Part shown: positions 29,199 to 41,976 of the stretch, piece by piece
Numbering within the stretch: position 1 is the stretch's first letter
Layout of the letters: every line of letters begins with the position of its first letter
Assembly: GCA_017443465.1 (NCBI GenBank)
Contig: JAFRXO010000036.1
Coordinates: 1-41,976, forward strand
Origin: Bacteroidales bacterium
GTDB taxonomy: Bacteria > Bacteroidota > Bacteroidia > Bacteroidales > UBA932
Reading direction: 5' to 3'
DNA length: 41,976 bases
Program-made: the position numbers and the translations under genes
The notes under the pieces: model-generated
What the model was told of the DNA's origin: nothing
Databases searched by the model: none
What the model saw: only the letters and a program-made list of their open reading frames with translations

Positions 29199-31688
29199 TT
29201 ACAGTCCCCAATCCGAAGCCGTAAAGGAGGATTCGGGGGCGTTCGGCACATTCGTGAAGAAGTCAAAGCCTGTGAGTTCCTCCAGGTCGTCGATCGTCAT
29301 CATTTCGGATTTGGTGACCGCTTGTCCTTTGATTCCGGGGGCATGGGCACGTACAAATGCTGCACACATCATTTCTGAAGCGGAGCAATCCTGCAGAGAT
29401 TTTCCTGTATTCCCTCTCTTTGTGCGAAGCAGGGCATAATAGAATGCAGTTGGAATCTGGACATTTACTCCCATGAAGGAGGCAGTCTGCTTGGTTGCGG
29501 AGTTGTTGTAGCCATCTTTGAAGGCTTCAAAATAACATCCAATAACGACATAGAGCGTGTCAGAACATTCAAAACCGTCAACGAAGTCCTCAAGTATGTT
29601 CCAACCTCCTCCTCCCGTATTGAACCATGTTTGATTCTGCGGAGCGATATTAGTGTAGAACATTACCTGCCGATTCAATTCACGTGATCCCAAGCGCTCA
29701 GCAGAACCTAACATGTGGCCTTTGTTATAGCCGCTGCTAGCATCATCGTTTGCTTGTTGGACATTCGAGGGAATATCAGGGTCAGGATAATATGATTTAG
29801 TGCGTTCAACAACTTTTGTCGAATAAATAGAATGTCTCGGAGCAGCTACCCACACAGGGCAGTGATATGAGCCATTGTAACAGACAGTATAGTTTCTGCT
29901 TCCAACGTCTGCAATATGGTAAGCGTAATAGAGGTTCGGATTGTTGTCGTCAACCAGGTAGCCTTGGGTGTTCTTGGTGTAATTCATCACAGGAAGCTCG
30001 AACCATCCCTTCTGGTCGCCGTCATCTTCCGGGTTCGGGGACTTGGTCTTGAATGATCTGACCTCTCCGTAATAGAAGTGCGAGACACCGTCCTCAAGGA
30101 CCCTGACATATGCACGGTAGTAGTAAGTCGTATTTGAAGCCAGGCCGGTGAGATCGGCTGTGAAATCGCCGCTGAGGGATGTCAGTGCGGTCTCGGACTG
30201 CTGGTCATTGGGATTCGAACCGATCACCTGGGCCTCAGAGGTACCCCATTGGAAGCCTTTATATGTCGGAACGGCTTTGGCGTTGGCATATGAACCGGAA
30301 AGACTGGCGCTTTCTGTGGTTATGCTGGATGCTCCGTCCGTGGTGACCGTAGTCTCGCCTGGCGTCGTGCCTCCGCCGGCGCCATCCTGGTACTGGATGG
30401 TGAAGCTCCTGCAGTAGAGTGAGTTGGCAGTTGCGCCGATGGTGATAACCACATCTTCACCGGGTGCGACTGTAGCGGGTGTCACTATCGGGAAGAGGTC
30501 CACGTAATCCTGTGCCCACTCACCGTTGAATGACTTGGTGTTGAAAGCAACTCCTGAAGAAGCGCTTCCAAGTGAGGAGATGGTCTTGTCCCCGACATTG
30601 ACGGAATAATAGCCCGATCCGCTGCTCTTGTTCGACTTCATGCTGAGGATGATTCCGGTAATGGTCACGCCGTCATATCCTTTCAGCGTAAGGGTCATCG
30701 AGTTGCCCTCGGTCATCTGGTAAACAGAGCTATAAGTCGCCGAGTATGTCGCAGAGGAATTCTCCGGGTAGGTGAACTTGCTTTCATCTGTAGTGACGGA
30801 AGATGTGGTGGCAACGACGTACTGGGCCTCATAGGTCGGCGGGGCAGTCCAGGACAGGCCCTGGATCGTGCCTACGTTCTTTATGACACCGGGGGAGAAG
30901 GCCTTCAGGGTAGCACTGACACTGGCAGTGTAGCCGTCGGTAGCGACAATGGAGAGGGTGACCTTGCCTCCGGCATTCGGGAGAACCAGGAAGTAATAGT
31001 CTCCGTCAGCCAGGGCTCCGGATCCTGAAAGGGTCACGCTCCTCGATGACTCGCTTCCGGCAGCAGCCTCGATGTCAGAACCGTCATATGAGATCTTGAC
31101 GTCCCCGGAAAGGGGATAATTCTCACTCGTGAGGGTGATGGAAGATATGCTGTGGCCTTCGAGCTTGCTGGCGTCCACAGTGACCTTCGCTGCGCTGAGC
31201 ATGCTCTGGAACGGCAGGGCGGTCTTGCTGGTGGAGTAAGCGGCAAGTATCAGTTTCTCATCGGGGATGTTGCCGGTGACGGCAGCCTGGGTTCCGGGGA
31301 CGGATGCATTTACGGAAACAATGCCGTCCTTGGCTGTGAAAGAAGCCGCGGAATTGTAAGGATACAGTGCGTAAAACTCTGTAGCGGAGCTGCTTACCTC
31401 TCCGGTTACAGGAGAGGTCGTCCCGGCTTTCTCAGTGGTGAATTCGCGAAGCGCGGTACCGTCATAGACCGCGATCTTCTCGCCTTCCTTCCAATTGAGG
31501 GAGAGCTTGTCGTCTCCGAGGACCAGCTTGGTTTCCTCGAAGGAAGCTGCCTCGGCATTGAATGTTACCTTTACCAGTTCGGCGTCACCTTCCTGGGTTG
31601 GCTGCGGAGCGTTGATCTCTTTTTCCGCGCAGGAGGTGAATGCCGTCAATATTGCTGCAAGTGCAGCGGTTTTGAATATGCGTTTCAT
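29199..31688 (-). CDS. Multi-domain lipoprotein with DNA/RNA non-specific endonuclease domain
   Basis: An 829-aa surface or periplasmic lipoprotein. Residues 1-20 form a lipoprotein signal with lipobox LTAFTSC (Cys20). About 25-285 resemble fimbrillin-like beta domains of Bacteroidales (WKEGEKIAVYDG, FYALYPYN). About 290-440 are another beta domain, and about 450-555 a fibronectin III-like domain (GLASNTTYYYRAYVRV). The last 270 residues are a NUC1-type nuclease: the catalytic-His motif reads GYNKGHMLGSAER (family DRGH), with NIAPQNQTWFN supplying the metal-binding Asn. Such nucleases degrade external nucleic acids, for nutrition or biofilm/NET escape (inferred). The gene follows a 42-aa ORF after 1 nt. 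Confidence 0.88.
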   Translation of the reverse strand: MKRIFKTAALAAILTAFTSCAEKEINAPQPTQEGDAELVKVTFNAEAASFEETKLVLGDDKLSLNWKEGEKIAVYDGTALREFTTEKAGTTSPVTGEVSSSATEFYALYPYNSAASFTAKDGIVSVNASVPGTQAAVTGNIPDEKLILAAYSTSKTALPFQSMLSAAKVTVDASKLEGHSISSITLTSENYPLSGDVKISYDGSDIEAAAGSESSRSVTLSGSGALADGDYYFLVLPNAGGKVTLSIVATDGYTASVSATLKAFSPGVIKNVGTIQGLSWTAPPTYEAQYVVATTSSVTTDESKFTYPENSSATYSATYSSVYQMTEGNSMTLTLKGYDGVTITGIILSMKSNKSSGSGYYSVNVGDKTISSLGSASSGVAFNTKSFNGEWAQDYVDLFPIVTPATVAPGEDVVITIGATANSLYCRSFTIQYQDGAGGGTTPGETTVTTDGASSITTESASLSGSYANAKAVPTYKGFQWGTSEAQVIGSNPNDQQSETALTSLSGDFTADLTGLASNTTYYYRAYVRVLEDGVSHFYYGEVRSFKTKSPNPEDDGDQKGWFELPVMNYTKNTQGYLVDDNNPNLYYAYHIADVGSRNYTVCYNGSYHCPVWVAAPRHSIYSTKVVERTKSYYPDPDIPSNVQQANDDASSGYNKGHMLGSAERLGSRELNRQVMFYTNIAPQNQTWFNTGGGGWNILEDFVDGFECSDTLYVVIGCYFEAFKDGYNNSATKQTASFMGVNVQIPTAFYYALLRTKRGNTGKSLQDCSASEMMCAAFVRAHAPGIKGQAVTKSEMMTIDDLEELTGFDFFTNVPNAPESSFTASDWGL

Positions 31689-36448: not shown

Positions 36449-37099
36449 ATGAAAGACACTGGCTGCATTTACATCCTCACCAACCCATCCTTTCCGGAAT
36501 ATGTTAAGATTGGCTATGCCACCAACTTGGAAAACCGTCTAAAACAGCTCAACCGGAGCGAGACCATTCCTTATGCTTTCCGAGCGTACGCAATCTACGA
36601 GGTCGATAAAGCCCTCACCGACAAGGAACTTCACAAGCTGATTGATAAGCTGAATCCGGAACTTCGTGCCATCGATGAGTTTGATGGTAAGCCCCGTGTA
36701 AAAGAGTTCTATGCAATGACGAAAGAGGCTGCCTATGAGCTTCTGGAATGCATTGCCAAGATTTCCGGGACTATGGATCGTCTTAAGAAGGTTAAGCCGG
36801 AGGGTCATGAAATCGAGGATGAACAGATTGCCCAGGAGATAAAGGAAACCGCTCGCCGAGGTCCATTCAACTTCGGCGAGTGCGGGATTCCTGTGGGTGC
36901 CGAGTTGGTTTACGTTGAAAACGCATCTATCAAGGTAAAAGTCATCGATGACCGCCATATCGAATACCAGGGAGAAACAACTTCGCTATCTCGTCTTGCC
37001 CAGAGTCTCAAGGGCTTCAATCACCCTGTTCAGGGAACACTCTGGTTTACCTATAACGGGGAAATCTTGAACGCCCTTCGCGACCGTTTAGGCAAATAA
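36449..37099 (+). CDS. GIY-YIG nuclease (T5orf172/Mug113 type) with RAMA-like C-terminus
   Basis: A 216-aa protein. Residues 6-100 are a GIY-YIG nuclease domain: IYILTNPSFPEYVKIGYATN holds the two tyrosine/glycine strands (IY at 7-8, KIG at 20-22), LENRLKQLN the conserved Arg (30), and DKELHKLI a likely metal-binding Glu. The domain closes with VKEFYAMTKEAAYELLECIA. Residues about 135-216 (GECGIPVGAELVYVENASIK, TTSLSRLAQSLKGFNHPVQG, TLWFTYNG) resemble RAMA-type modules found in restriction and modification proteins, a judgement made by eye. It is first of three tightly packed genes (7-nt gap to the next) in an AT-richer region before a type I restriction gene, so a DNA-cleaving defence role is inferred. 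Confidence 0.85.
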   Translation: MKDTGCIYILTNPSFPEYVKIGYATNLENRLKQLNRSETIPYAFRAYAIYEVDKALTDKELHKLIDKLNPELRAIDEFDGKPRVKEFYAMTKEAAYELLECIAKISGTMDRLKKVKPEGHEIEDEQIAQEIKETARRGPFNFGECGIPVGAELVYVENASIKVKVIDDRHIEYQGETTSLSRLAQSLKGFNHPVQGTLWFTYNGEILNALRDRLGK

Positions 37100-37106
37100 C
37101 AAGATT

Positions 37107-38669
37107 GTGGAGCCCAATAGTCACATATCGCCATTCATTTCAGAGCATGCAGACCTTAAAGTCGGCCTGAATCAACTTGGACTGCGAAATGCTCCGGAGA
37201 TGCTTTTCACAGCATTGCTCCGTGGCCTCAACAACGTAACTGCCAGAATCCGTTACTATAGCTTTTATTGCTGGCTGATGGATGCCTTCTGTAGCCCTCA
37301 TGCTTCAGTTGATCCGAAACAGCAGCCTAAGTTCATCCGAAAGGCGGAGTATCTTCTGGCACTCATTCAAACGCAGACTGACGATGCCCTCGGAATTCCG
37401 GGTATTAACTACGCCAGCGCCAAGGCCAGTGACTCAAACTCCTCGATTTTTGACCTTCAGAAAGGGACTTATAACGAGTCTGGTGGCACGAGGACAGGCA
37501 CATACTTCGCTAATCCTGGCGGTGTTTTCGCTCAGTACTACGCTAGATCATTGAACGATATCAAGCTGATCGGCGAAAACGAAGTGTCGAAAAGGGATAA
37601 GCTGTATGTCGCATCCAATGGAGAAGGTTATCTCAACGGAAAAACACTTGCTAATGCATTTGCAGCCAGCATTGGGTCAGATAACATTTCTCTTTTTCTC
37701 CAATGCGTTGATGATGGTGTGGTCAGTCGAGATCAACTTGGTTCACTCAAAGAGAGATTCCGGATGAAATCCTTCGCCGATGCTGAAGAAGAAAGAGATT
37801 TGCTTATCAAACTTCTTTTGCAGGAGGACTTCCGAGGTTCTGACGAGGTTACTTATTACAGGAAAAACACCCTTCTTCTTTTCCTGGAATACATCAAGAA
37901 TCAGCCTGGGAATGATCACAATGTTGATTTCCCGAAATATGTTTACCAACAATACATCAAGGCACCATCACAGGACCCGGTACACGCTGGTTGGTATGCT
38001 TATTATTTGGATGATAACTATCAATACCAAGCGTCCATTCTGCTGAAAAACATCCTTGGAATCCTCAACTCTGGTCCCTATAAAGATCTTTGGGTAGAAC
38101 TAGAGGCATTGGTTCATGAGATTGCGAAAGGGATAACGGACGTCCTTTCGGCTCAGGGGTATTCCGGTACCGTTGAACATGTGTGCTCATTATTAAAAGG
38201 CGGAGAACCGCAGTGGCAGCAGAACAGGGGGGCTTATCCGGCGATGTCGGAGGCTTTGTTGAACTTGTTCTATCAAACTACGGTGAACGAGCCGTACTTA
38301 GAGTCTATAAAAGACATTCAGGCCCGTTATTTTGCGATGACTGGAGTGGATGATTTTTCTCGCTTCATCCAACTTTGCAAGGAACAGGCGCAGTGGCCAT
38401 TAGAAGACTTCATCCATGATTTCCTGGAGAAACAAATCATAAGGAAGCATTTCCGCGTTGCTATGCGGAAGTACCATCAGACAGGTATTGCTTCTTACAA
38501 GTTCTTGCTGGAAGATGGATATATCAGGTTCCTTGATGGCGTTGAGGCTACCCACATGGACTCCCGAATCGGCACCGTTGCGGATTTCCTTCGAGAGCTG
38601 GAATTGTATGATAAAGACGGGCTTCTTCCTCTTGGAGAAGAGTGCCTCGAGTTGGAGGGCCGGCTATGA
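37107..38669 (+). CDS. 520-aa protein of unknown family, middle gene of the nuclease operon
   Basis: I do not recognise this protein. It starts at GTG 37107, 7 nt after the GIY-YIG stop, with no better upstream start. The sequence is mostly alpha-helical and soluble, with no signal peptide or membrane helix. The N-terminal block MLFTALLRGLNNVTARIRYY then SFYCWLMDAF is the most distinctive part. A Gly/Ser-rich segment (TYNESGGTRTGTYFANPGG) is near residue 130. The C-terminus (HFRVAMRKYHQTGIASYKFL ... RIGTVADFLRELELY) could be a winged-helix-like end. No nuclease, ATPase or methylase motif is evident. It overlaps the PLD gene by 4 nt (ATGA), implying stoichiometric production and probably a complex. 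Confidence 0.75.
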   Translation: MEPNSHISPFISEHADLKVGLNQLGLRNAPEMLFTALLRGLNNVTARIRYYSFYCWLMDAFCSPHASVDPKQQPKFIRKAEYLLALIQTQTDDALGIPGINYASAKASDSNSSIFDLQKGTYNESGGTRTGTYFANPGGVFAQYYARSLNDIKLIGENEVSKRDKLYVASNGEGYLNGKTLANAFAASIGSDNISLFLQCVDDGVVSRDQLGSLKERFRMKSFADAEEERDLLIKLLLQEDFRGSDEVTYYRKNTLLLFLEYIKNQPGNDHNVDFPKYVYQQYIKAPSQDPVHAGWYAYYLDDNYQYQASILLKNILGILNSGPYKDLWVELEALVHEIAKGITDVLSAQGYSGTVEHVCSLLKGGEPQWQQNRGAYPAMSEALLNLFYQTTVNEPYLESIKDIQARYFAMTGVDDFSRFIQLCKEQAQWPLEDFIHDFLEKQIIRKHFRVAMRKYHQTGIASYKFLLEDGYIRFLDGVEATHMDSRIGTVADFLRELELYDKDGLLPLGEECLELEGRL

Positions 38670-41212
38670 ATACTCGATACTGCATCTTTGGTAGTATAGT
38701 TGAGAAGAGCGGCGTGAGTTATAACTCCGTCATTCTGACTACTTTTTCCTTTGACCCGGTGTTCTTCAATAATTATTACCTGCCGAAACTTCGCGCCGTC
38801 AATGCAACAAATATTCTTGTCCTCATAGACGCTGACCGTTATGATGAAGCGATGGAGCTAATTTACGGTGAGGATGGCTTGGCAAGCAATAATGCCTCGC
38901 TATCATTTACTCCAATTCGCATTAAGAGCCGCGGTAATGGCGTGTTCCATCCTAAGGTCGCTCTCTTTGTCGGGGAGTCTAAGTGTATGGCGCTGGTTGG
39001 GTCTGGTAATTTGACTTGTGGCGGAACCTCCTATAATGAAGAAGTCTGGAATGCCTTCTGTGCAGATAGTGCCACGTCTTCGGAGGCCCCAATCATCAAC
39101 GCTGTGTGGCGATATATTAATTCGCTAATTGGAGATGATTCCGAAAATGTAAAGGAACAGCTCAAATGGGTTACTGCCTTCAGTGAGTTGATGCGCGGGA
39201 TTTCAGAAAGCGTTCAGACCGTTCTCGAGAATGATGAAGAGCGAATATCTTTGTTATCAAACGAGCCGGGGTCTTCCATTTTTGCTCAATTAATGGCCGC
39301 CGTGGACGGTGTCACGGTAAAGAAGCTCTCCATGCTTGCACCATACTATGACACGAATGGAAGGGCCATTGCGGCGCTAATGGATACTTTTAACCCTGAG
39401 GCCGTTGATTGTTATGTGGATAACGAACGCGGCACGCTTCCCACTGGGCTTCCGGCATCCTACTTAGACCGCATCTCATTTCATAAGATTAAAGAAGATC
39501 GGACTCATGCCAAGATTCTACAATTGGAATCTGAATCAGAGACTTGGGTCCTCACGGGCAGCGCCAATATCACTCGGGCAGCGCTCGGATTGGATGGACA
39601 GCCGGGCAACGAAGAGGCATCTATCCTGCTTCAGGCAAAGGGTAAAGTGGATTACCTGAAGGAATTAGGCTTCGAGAAAAGCCCGATTGACATCTTGACT
39701 ATAGCCCAAAAAGGTGGCAATAAATCGCTATCTAAAAGTCATAAAGAAGTATCTATTCATTGTTGTGAACTATGGGAAGGCACCTATCGTCTTAAGCTGA
39801 ATAAAGATGTAGACAACGTAGATATCTGCATTTATCATCTTGTCGGAGTGCCGTCTATTCATCACTTCGATAGACTCACTTGTGTACAAGAAATGCCGGC
39901 ATCCCTAATGCAGGATGCCATCTCCTTAGTGTTGCAGCGAGACGGCGTAAATATTTCCAATCGTATTTATATTCTGGACCAAGAGAGTATCCAGAAGGGC
40001 TGTCCAGATAAGGTGATTAAGCAGCTTGCAGATCTCTTCGGTAAATCTGAGGGGACAAACTGGTGGAATAAAATAGCAGGTATCCTGGGAAGTGTCTATG
40101 TAGATGAACCTTCATCCTCAACCAAGGATTATGCTGGGCGAATGGTATCACGGACGAGCAAAAGTAAAGAGGATACCAGCAGTGAAGATGAGGGCCTCGT
40201 ATATGCTGCGGACTACGATAAGGTGGTTTTTAAACAGGACGGCTATTCCTCTCGTATTAACCAGCGTATTTTTGACTTCATCTTTTCAGGAATGCGCCAA
40301 GAATTTGAAGCAGAGGAATCGGATGAGAAGAATAGTATAAAGGAAGTGGAAGATGGAAAGGCTGCACGGGCTGAGAAAAAAAAGAGAGTTTTCATTGTTC
40401 ATAGCCCCAGCGCAATAAATGCCACTATGAACTATTTAATGAGGCTGGAGAAAAAGTATATAGCACCCTTGAAGGAGTTTGACTCCACGGATCTTATTCC
40501 TATAACGCTTAATCCTGACCCTTATCAGAAGGGATATCCTCCTTTGCCTGCAAGTCTTACTCATTATTCTGCCATTTTAGTTGCGGTAGCTTTAATGATG
40601 AGAGTAAGCAATGATAATGAGGAAGAGAAAAAAGAAGACGTTAAGAGTAGGATTAAGTACTATGCTTTGTGTCTGCTCAACCGATTCCTTCTTACGTTTA
40701 GGCGCAGTATTACTGTATCTCAAGAGTATCGTTCAATCCAACTCCAGAGAATGCAGCGCGAGTTGTTTGCCCACGGCCTGATTCTTCTGGGCCATTATTC
40801 TTGGGATGTTTGGAAACTTACCATTACGGTTCTAAATCTGTGTGATACTTTTGACCCCACCCATCCGGAATTATTACAACAGGCAGTTTCGGCTTTTGAG
40901 AATGAAATCAAAGAAGACTACATGAGTCTCAATTCCGATACTCTGGCATATATTCATCGCCTATTATCAAAGTTTAAGACTGAAGGCAGAATGTGTGAAG
41001 TAATCAAGACTGTCTCGGCGCCTGGGAAGTTCATTTATTACAACAGGAAACTGGGATATCTTATCTGCGACTCGGTAAAGAGGGGTTATGGGAAAGATCC
41101 TTTTTACGGGCATATCACTACACCTGCGCTAAAGGAAGGCCAAATGGAAAGAGTTTATATTCCTGAAAGTATTCGGATGTTACCAGCTGATTTCTTAATT
41201 AGTACTACCTGA
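38666..41212 (+). CDS. Phospholipase D-like (PLDc) putative nuclease, 848 aa
   Basis: Starts at ATG 38666, overlapping the previous stop as ATGA. A GTG 24 bp upstream is in frame but less likely. Two HKD-type half-sites are complete: FHPKVALF (His95, Lys97) with GSGNLTCGG (112-120), and THAKILQL (His281, Lys283) with GSANITRAA (298-306). This pattern of HxK followed by GSxN is that of PLD-fold phosphodiesterases such as BfiI-type nucleases and DISARM DrmC. The two sites would form one active centre in one chain. Residues about 350-848 are of unknown fold and mainly helical, with a charged linker near 555-585 (EAEESDEKNSIKEVEDGKAA). DNA cleavage is inferred from the fold and the neighbouring hsdR, and lipid activity is unlikely. 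Confidence 0.87.
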   Translation: MNTRYCIFGSIVEKSGVSYNSVILTTFSFDPVFFNNYYLPKLRAVNATNILVLIDADRYDEAMELIYGEDGLASNNASLSFTPIRIKSRGNGVFHPKVALFVGESKCMALVGSGNLTCGGTSYNEEVWNAFCADSATSSEAPIINAVWRYINSLIGDDSENVKEQLKWVTAFSELMRGISESVQTVLENDEERISLLSNEPGSSIFAQLMAAVDGVTVKKLSMLAPYYDTNGRAIAALMDTFNPEAVDCYVDNERGTLPTGLPASYLDRISFHKIKEDRTHAKILQLESESETWVLTGSANITRAALGLDGQPGNEEASILLQAKGKVDYLKELGFEKSPIDILTIAQKGGNKSLSKSHKEVSIHCCELWEGTYRLKLNKDVDNVDICIYHLVGVPSIHHFDRLTCVQEMPASLMQDAISLVLQRDGVNISNRIYILDQESIQKGCPDKVIKQLADLFGKSEGTNWWNKIAGILGSVYVDEPSSSTKDYAGRMVSRTSKSKEDTSSEDEGLVYAADYDKVVFKQDGYSSRINQRIFDFIFSGMRQEFEAEESDEKNSIKEVEDGKAARAEKKKRVFIVHSPSAINATMNYLMRLEKKYIAPLKEFDSTDLIPITLNPDPYQKGYPPLPASLTHYSAILVAVALMMRVSNDNEEEKKEDVKSRIKYYALCLLNRFLLTFRRSITVSQEYRSIQLQRMQRELFAHGLILLGHYSWDVWKLTITVLNLCDTFDPTHPELLQQAVSAFENEIKEDYMSLNSDTLAYIHRLLSKFKTEGRMCEVIKTVSAPGKFIYYNRKLGYLICDSVKRGYGKDPFYGHITTPALKEGQMERVYIPESIRMLPADFLISTT

Positions 41213-41235: not shown

Positions 41236-41727
41236 AACCAACCCCCATTTTCTCACATTACGTCTAGTCGTTCAATACACTACGCCAGTGAGATCGTATG
41301 ATGTAATGATAGGTGGATATGTGACGAAGTCGCGGACGGGAATTCGTTTTCTTGCTCAGCGATCAATCGCCACCTTGTACGATGTGTTGGATATGTTTGG
41401 CGTCATCATCGAATTCGATGCGCAGATGGTTGCCAATTAACTGGAGGCCTGCGATCTCTATCCCGATTCCTCCCTCGGCTATGCCATATATCTTTTATCC
41501 CTTTTGTCGCTCTCTTCTTATTTCGAGATTAGCCAATCTAGCTGTGATCTGGCCGAGACTCGTACCGAACAGTTCTGTGAAGAGATAACCGTCCCGAAGG
41601 AGATAGTTGCAACTCTATTGCTCGATGCCGGCGGAAAAGTGGTGTCAGCGTAGGGGGTGGCGGAGGTGGCTCCAACGATGATCTCACCAACTGGGACGGA
41701 ACGAAGAAGAAGGGTAGGCATTTGTAG
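41236..41727 (+). pseudogene. Decayed coding remnant, possibly the C-terminus of a mobilization protein
   Basis: Two plus-strand frames look protein-like but are broken. Frame A reads from about 41236, includes a 44-codon ORF from ATG 41306 (IRFLAQRSIATLYDVLDMFG) to TAA 41438, and continues past that stop (RTEQFCEEITVPKEIVATLL) to TAG 41651. Frame B then gives SVGGGGGGSNDDLTNWDGTK to TAG 41725. A Gly run followed by NDDL and WDG-lysine-rich sequence resembles, from memory, the tails of Bacteroidales relaxases. The stop and frame change suggest a pseudogene. It could also be fortuitous. Confidence 0.3.
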
Positions 41728-41887: not shown

Positions 41888-41976
41888 ATGGCTGAAGGCA
41901 AATTCAACGAGAACACTCGTGTTCAAGTTCCTGCTGCTTTGCACCTTGTCCGGTTGGGATACAAGTATCTGTCGCA
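41888..41976 (+). CDS. hsdR: Type I restriction endonuclease subunit R, N-terminal fragment
   Basis: Only 29 codons are inside the window, beginning MAEGKFNENTRVQVPAALHL and continuing VRLGYKYLS. This opening (NENTRVQVPAALHL-RLGY-YL) is characteristic of type I restriction HsdR proteins, where it precedes the PD-(D/E)XK nuclease and helicase domains. The gene continues past the right edge, where hsdM and hsdS should also lie. Its position makes the region a defence island. Confidence 0.85.
   Translation, partial: MAEGKFNENTRVQVPAALHLVRLGYKYLS

What the first reader, a model, noticed from the sequence alone, without database searches (positions are those of the whole stretch)
36449..41212. 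Three-gene nuclease operon (GIY-YIG + unknown 520 aa + double-HKD PLD protein) beside hsdR
The genes are packed as one unit (7-nt gap, then ATGA overlap). The outer two carry independent nuclease folds with intact catalytic motifs, while the middle one belongs to no family I know. The unit sits in an AT-richer segment directly before a type I restriction gene. Two different nuclease folds around an unknown helical protein do not match a named defence system that I can identify (DISARM has a PLD protein, DrmC, but with helicase and methylase genes that are absent here). It may be a new anti-phage system or an accessory of the type I RM locus.
Basis: partly seen in the sequence, partly recalled or inferred. 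Interest (0 to 1): 0.85.

Follow-up and report, generated by a model that had tools for sequence, protein, structure and literature searches.

The report
Helicase-free relative of Zac defence
Two of the three genes form a tightly linked pair, probably a DNA-binding protein plus a DNA-cutting enzyme, that many bacteria carry and that looks like a cut-down relative of a catalogued anti-phage system called Zac; the third gene, another nuclease, is probably a separate passenger.

Summary
In detail: three packed genes (GIY-YIG, 520 aa, double-HKD PLD), then a decayed mobilisation-gene remnant and 29 codons of hsdR at the contig end. The interpretation needs splitting. The 520-aa and PLD genes are a pair: PLD directly follows in 76 of 80 genome loci (three others end at a contig edge; in one the first gene is truncated and no PLD was found). 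The GIY-YIG gene sits directly upstream in 2 of 93 loci; it is PADLOC candidate PDC-S57, whose ten other copies found in the order have no such pair beside them. The pair is a distant relative of PADLOC's Zac (ZacA-ZacB-ZacC): same order, a shared ~80-residue N-terminal module in gene 1, homologous double-HKD domains in gene 2. No ZacC-like helicase was adjacent in any locus (72 of 89 pairs have at least 1 kb downstream to judge). I do not file it as Zac; it is best called a helicase-less, Zac-like two-gene module, mobile and enriched near type I restriction genes. Likely mechanism: protein 1 (winged-helix-like, weak evidence) recognises DNA and licenses protein 2 (Tdp1/PLD3-like fold, catalytic residues intact in 60 of 61) to cut. 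Mechanism and defence function are inferred, not shown.

The parts
36449..37099 (+). GIY-YIG (T5orf172) protein of the PADLOC candidate family PDC-S57; accessory, not part of the conserved pair
   Evidence: PDC-S57 E 9.7e-99; T5orf172 2e-12; directly upstream of the pair in 2 of 93 loci
37107..38669 (+). First gene of the pair ('MID', 520 aa), ZacA-like N-terminal module, winged-helix-like model; probable DNA-binding/sensor subunit (function inferred)
   Evidence: Followed by PLD in 76 of 80 genome loci; profile match to ZacA E 3.2e-6; AlphaFold pLDDT 90, pTM 0.88; first structural rows MntR, FokI, MukF, all weak
37158..37403 (+). Stretch encoding MID residues 18-99, the module shared with ZacA/DUF6361
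   Evidence: hhalign A3 vs A5, 80 columns; conservation counts
38666..41212 (+). Second gene of the pair: double-HKD PLD-superfamily protein (848 aa), probable nuclease, with a beta-rich stretch after the catalytic part and a long helical C-terminal part
   Evidence: PLDc_2; ZacB E 2.2e-9; secondary structure; Tdp1/PLD-type fold over residues 1-355
38948..39043 (+). HKD motif 1 (H95, K97, S113, N115, E126)
   Evidence: H95 in 60 of 61, the other four in 61 of 61 aligned proteins
39506..39616 (+). HKD motif 2 (H281, K283, S299, N301, E317)
   Evidence: K283 in 60 of 61, the other four in 61 of 61
41441..41727 (+). Decayed remnant of the 3' part of a Mob_Pre-type mobilisation gene (interrupted frames)
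   Evidence: tblastn of separate pieces to L020, L027, L029 just after their PLD genes; the L020 gene is Mob_Pre 1.4e-8
41888..41976 (+). First 29 codons of a type I restriction hsdR gene, cut by the contig end
   Evidence: 74% identical to an annotated Bacteroides uniformis type I restriction endonuclease, E 9e-6; contig length 41976

Best explanation
The core is a mobile two-gene module. Gene 1 makes a helical, winged-helix-like protein (MID) that probably recognises invading or infection-altered DNA. Gene 2 makes a single-chain double-HKD protein of the Tdp1/PLD3-like fold that probably cuts DNA once gene 1's product recruits or releases it. It is a distant, helicase-less relative of PADLOC's ZacA-ZacB-ZacC: it keeps the A-B order and homologous domains but has no ZacC. 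The upstream GIY-YIG gene (PDC-S57) is probably an independent accessory, sometimes found beside type I restriction genes, that happens to lie in the same operon. Shown here: the pairing, parallel divergence of the two proteins, domain homology, intact catalytic residues, no adjacent ZacC-like gene, mobility, and restriction-locus enrichment. Inferred: DNA binding by MID, DNA as substrate, control of the nuclease by MID, and anti-phage function.
Confidence: 0.6

Rival explanations
1. All three genes are one system: the GIY-YIG enzyme nicks or marks DNA, MID recognises it, and the PLD enzyme finishes the cut.
For: The same order with a 6-nt gap recurs in L009, whose GIY is also PDC-S57.
Against: GIY is directly upstream in only 2 of 93 loci. 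The ten other PDC-S57 copies found in the order have no MID or PLD beside them. The close relatives L008, L010 and L011 lack it upstream. L009's PLD gene is broken into two frames.
Confidence: 0.12
2. The pair is an accessory of type I restriction: a second nuclease that acts when HsdR stalls or is blocked by an anti-restriction protein.
For: hsdR in 13 of 80 flanks, about 22 times a rough background; a same-strand hsd gene within 400 nt in 8 of 80. Myroides pFM-G13 has it between hsdS and hsdR. DarTG2 sits in the same slot in an E. coli island reported active against phage (PMC12255303, passages).
Against: 62 of 80 loci have no hsd gene detected in the sequence held (many flanks are short). 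This assembly has no N6_Mtase match. A true Zac also sits between hsdS and hsdR, so the slot is shared by different cargo.
Confidence: 0.15
3. Toxin-antitoxin style abortive module: MID is a DNA-binding repressor or inhibitor, PLD a self-directed nuclease freed on infection.
For: Inhibitor-first order with overlapping genes in 49 of 58; winged-helix-like hints for MID; plasmid and mobile setting.
Against: MID is large (median 525 aa), and its module shared with ZacA suggests a core role rather than simple inhibition. Toxicity of PLD alone is untested.
Confidence: 0.2
4. The PLD protein is a phospholipase that damages the membrane.
For: Fold rows include vaccinia F13, phospholipase D and phosphatidylserine synthase, the first two at the top by VIA.
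Against: Foldseek's first 38 rows are Tdp1; the defence relatives by sequence are ZacB and, weakly, DrmC; the partner looks DNA-binding.
Confidence: 0.05

Closest known systems
Zac (PADLOC ZacA/ZacB/ZacC; ZacA carries Pfam/NCBI name DUF6361)
   Same: Gene order A then B, adjacent or overlapping; shared N-terminal module of A (E 3.2e-6); homologous double-HKD part of B (E 4.5e-19); plasmid and type I restriction settings
   Different: No ZacC-like gene adjacent in 93 loci; MID median 525 aa against about 390-430 for ZacA, aligned only over the N-terminal module; PLD median 873 aa against mostly about 590-660 for ZacB, with a long extra C-terminal part. One Sphingobium genome holds both the pair (L078) and a ZacA gene (L105), so they are not simply interchangeable
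PDC-S57 (PADLOC candidate, single gene)
   Same: The GIY-YIG gene of the window and of L009
   Different: Covers only the GIY-YIG gene, not the pair
DISARM (DrmC PLD nuclease)
   Same: PLD-superfamily protein; weak DrmC matches (window 0.0015; best relative 8.7e-9)
   Different: Its helicase, DUF1998 and methylase genes (recalled; DrmC as PLD from passages of PMC12458937) are not the recurring partners here
PDC-M27 (PADLOC candidate)
   Same: Has a component M27B that weakly matches the window PLD, 5.6e-6
   Different: Has a component M27C that matches ZacC helicases (3e-21), for which no counterpart was seen here

Membership tests
Zac (PADLOC) | First gene is ZacA/DUF6361 | tested here: not met
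   Window MID: 0 PADLOC and Pfam families at E <= 1; 48 of 67 aligned MID proteins match ZacA at E <= 0.01; DUF6361 in 2 of 67; shared module by profile comparison only
Zac (PADLOC) | Second gene is a ZacB-type double-HKD PLD protein | tested here: met
   ZacB is the best PADLOC hit of the window PLD, E 2.2e-9, but its best stretch is short (289-342); hhalign E 4.5e-19 over 291 columns
Zac (PADLOC) | Third gene is the ZacC helicase | tested here: not met
   No ZacC-profile hit next to the pair in 93 loci; the only two hits lie more than 5 kb away (L036, L081). 72 of 89 pairs have at least 1 kb downstream. In the window the next gene is the start of hsdR
PDC-S57 | Match to the PDC-S57 profile over nearly full length | tested here: met
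   9.7e-99, residues 1-214 of 216
DISARM | DrmC-type PLD with helicase, DrmB and methylase | tested here: inconclusive
   Weak DrmC match of the window PLD, 0.0015; the other window genes were not scanned against PADLOC and the contig ends
PLD superfamily (HKD) | Two HxK...N...E catalytic half-sites | tested here: met
   All eight residues in 60 of 61 aligned proteins, L069 the exception
Winged-helix DNA-binding proteins | Winged-helix fold in MID | tested here: inconclusive
Type I restriction-modification | hsdM, hsdS and hsdR together at this locus | tested here: inconclusive
   Only 29 codons of hsdR before the contig ends; no N6_Mtase match in the assembly, which is in 81 contigs and about 96% complete

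The most novel reading that the evidence does not exclude
A widespread, undescribed two-gene anti-phage system in which a winged-helix recogniser and a single-chain double-HKD nuclease cut foreign DNA with no dedicated helicase, ATPase or modification enzyme. It would be the minimal form from which, or towards which, the helicase-bearing Zac systems evolved.
Probability: 0.4. Interest if true: 0.65.

Novelty: new variant of a known kind. Interest (0 to 1): 0.5.

Why it matters
The pair is common and mobile (222 stretches encoding a relative in one genome scan), yet its first gene is 'hypothetical protein' in all 12 plasmid records matched, and PADLOC's models see it only faintly. If it restricts DNA without a helicase or a methylase, it raises the direct question of how such a nuclease tells self from non-self. 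It also gives Zac, on which my searches of the paper library showed nothing (listings partly capped), a simpler relative to study.

Tried and rejected
Single-query searches of the window MID: no PADLOC, Pfam, NCBIfam or PDB-sequence match worth keeping. PDB profile searches with A3 and A4 gave nothing useful. Foldseek of MID against PDB and against viral models: no hit at E <= 0.001. VIA-align rows for MID are below the level at which a fold can be claimed. First viral-contig scan with MID: none. GenBank phages: no match for MID or PLD.

Papers: ten searches. Those aimed at Zac: 17 papers, none on defence by title; 20 of 219 listed, 'zac' counted 0 in each listed; 20 of 414 listed, unrelated uses of the letters; no paper holds both 'Zac' and 'PADLOC'; DUF6361: 0 papers. 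Broad ones were seen only as listings, mostly capped; no title described this pair. Subscription journals and bioRxiv as a collection are not held, so this is not proof of absence. A likely source of the PDC candidates was seen only as title phrases counted inside other papers. Passages read: PMC12458937, PMC13092281, PMC12255303. DISARM as an identity was set aside because its other genes are not the recurring partners of the pair.

Neighbour tally: 145 of 281 non-redundant neighbour proteins (up to 1100 aa) were scanned, the other 136 were not. Only the top 25 of 427 PADLOC families and 25 of 141 Pfam families are shown, and PADLOC's shown rows are nearly all overlapping type I models, so no share of defence neighbours is claimed. 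The hsdR background (202 matches in 99 genomes, mean 3.46 Mb, 0.58 expected) used a Pfam model while the loci used protein seeds, and the loci are related, so the Poisson value printed is only indicative. L102 and L103 repeat L008 and L058, so the 93 loci are 91 distinct places. Alignments A3 (67) and A4 (61) left out truncated and broken copies and several near-duplicates. The mirror-tree correlation has no control for host descent.

Full report
What is there. The window is a whole contig (G000:C81, 41976 bases) of a 2.65 Mb, 81-contig assembly; by my reading of the closest named relatives the host is one of the Bacteroidales. At its right end lie three + strand genes: GIY-YIG 36449-37099, MID 37107-38669 (GTG start) and PLD 38666-41212. 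The first gap is 7 nt; the second junction is an ATGA overlap. The segment is AT-richer than the rest (0.42-0.47 against 0.48-0.59 G+C). After PLD come 675 nt with a decayed stretch and then 29 codons of hsdR, cut by the contig end. The 29 residues match annotated type I restriction endonucleases. Two separate pieces of the decayed stretch match sequence just downstream of the PLD gene, on the opposite strand, in L020, L027 or L029; the L020 gene is a Mob_Pre mobilisation protein.

The pair, not the trio, is the unit. One scan of genome contigs with a seven-protein MID alignment found 222 stretches that encode a relative, of which the best 80 were kept. In 76 of these 80 a PLD gene directly follows MID; in three of the 76 (L009, L039, L063) that gene is split into separate frames, and some others run off the contig. 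In L034, L044 and L062 MID runs off the contig; in L066 MID is truncated and no PLD was found. Of 12 plasmid records with a MID match I opened six (Myroides, Sphingopyxis, Roseovarius, Prevotella, Polaromonas, Undibacterium); all six have the pair. With mechanically chosen starts the junction overlaps in 49 of 58 measured loci. Pairwise identities of the two proteins correlate at 0.972 over 58 loci, permutation maximum 0.130; common host descent also raises this value. The GIY-YIG gene precedes the pair directly in the window and in L009 only, 2 of 93 loci, of which 89 hold both genes and 82 of those at least 0.7 kb upstream. L009's GIY is also PDC-S57, 6 nt before MID. The GIY of Roseovarius L004 is divergent and belongs to another candidate, PDC-S14. 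PDC-S57 occurs in 10 of 198 genomes of the order, the window's included. Around its ten other copies no MID or PLD was seen; in three (L134, L140, L142) an hsd gene is an immediate neighbour and in a fourth (L135) hsdR lies three genes away.

Relation to Zac. The window MID matches nothing useful in PADLOC, Pfam or NCBIfam, but 48 of 67 aligned MID proteins match PADLOC ZacA at E <= 0.01, best 3.9e-7. PADLOC names were tested for all three genes in L097, L098 and L109 and for ZacA in L111; the other plasmids rest on annotation. In L116 the helicase interval carries no annotated gene in an incomplete table, in L113 the DUF6361 gene is fragmentary, and in L114 and L117 the second gene is only 'hypothetical protein'. 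Profile comparison ties MID to ZacA over 80 columns (E 3.2e-6, probability 88%) and PLD to ZacB over 291 columns spanning both HKD motifs (E 4.5e-19). A ZacC profile finds no gene next to the pair in 93 loci; its two hits lie more than 5 kb away. The downstream side could be judged over at least 1 kb in 72 and over at least 3 kb in 68 of the 89 loci with the pair. Other helicase genes, hsdR and in L006 the SNF2 gene of a Zorya locus, do lie next to some copies. Haliscomenobacter carries a true Zac between hsdS and hsdR, the slot where Myroides carries the pair. A Sphingobium genome has both the pair and a ZacA gene. Because ZacA by direct match and ZacC are not met, I do not file the pair as Zac; it is a helicase-less relative.

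Setting and mobility. hsdR lies in the flanks of 13 of 80 genome loci against about 0.6 expected at a rough background density; some hsd gene lies in 18 of 80, and one within 400 nt on the same strand in 8 of 80. 62 of 80 show none in the sequence held, so the pair does not appear to depend on one nearby. A Zorya locus is the neighbour on Polaromonas pPNAP01. Copies in Empedobacter, Halpernia, Pedobacter and Sphingobacterium are 98-100% identical in DNA with shared flanking genes, which points to recent transfer. Three IMG/VR contigs, predicted viral, carry the pair (L118-L120), and a fourth a PLD alone; no GenBank phage matched. In a sample of 295 genomes of the order, 6 had MID, the window's included.

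Mechanism. The best reading is that MID recognises DNA or a DNA state and that the PLD protein cuts. Steps shown: linkage, parallel divergence, intact active sites, nuclease-compatible fold, relation to ZacB, no dedicated helicase partner seen. Steps inferred: DNA as substrate, recognition by MID, control of the nuclease, protection against phage. A toxin-antitoxin style variant and a restriction-accessory variant remain open. The precedent that active defence cargo sits between hsdS and hsdR is DarTG2 in E. coli (PMC12255303, passages read).

Verdict. A real, conserved, mobile, probably defensive gene pair; a new variant of the Zac kind rather than a categorically new system; the reading as one three-gene system is not supported.

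Noticed in passing
window 41441-41727: Decayed Mob_Pre-type mobilisation-gene remnant between PLD and hsdR; related sequence lies just after the pair in L020, L027 and L029, there on the opposite strand, hinting at a shared mobile element.
   Followed up: partly
L042, L045, L051, L054, L059, L068, L071, L072, L073 around the pair: The same short flanking genes surround the pair in several Flavobacteriia and Sphingobacteriia genera, some copies 98-100% identical: probably an integrative element carrying the pair as cargo.
   Followed up: partly
L111 8998-15517: A Zac set embedded between hsdS and hsdR on Haliscomenobacter plasmid pHALHY01, the slot that the pair uses in Myroides L002.
   Followed up: partly
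L110 1916-7983 and L116 1840-7892: In Bradyrhizobium and Rhizobium plasmids an annotated PD-(D/E)XK nuclease plus UvrD helicase pair sits directly before Zac; a possible larger cassette.
   Followed up: no
window MID residues 39, 486, 497 and PLD residue 20: The window copy differs at positions held by nearly all aligned proteins (P39 in 65 of 67, P486 in 66 of 67, D497 in 65 of 67, PLD H20 in 59 of 61); it may be a diverged copy.
   Followed up: no
window 29199-31688, - strand: 829-aa ORF whose C-terminal part looks by eye like a secreted DNA/RNA non-specific endonuclease; not tested by any search.
   Followed up: no
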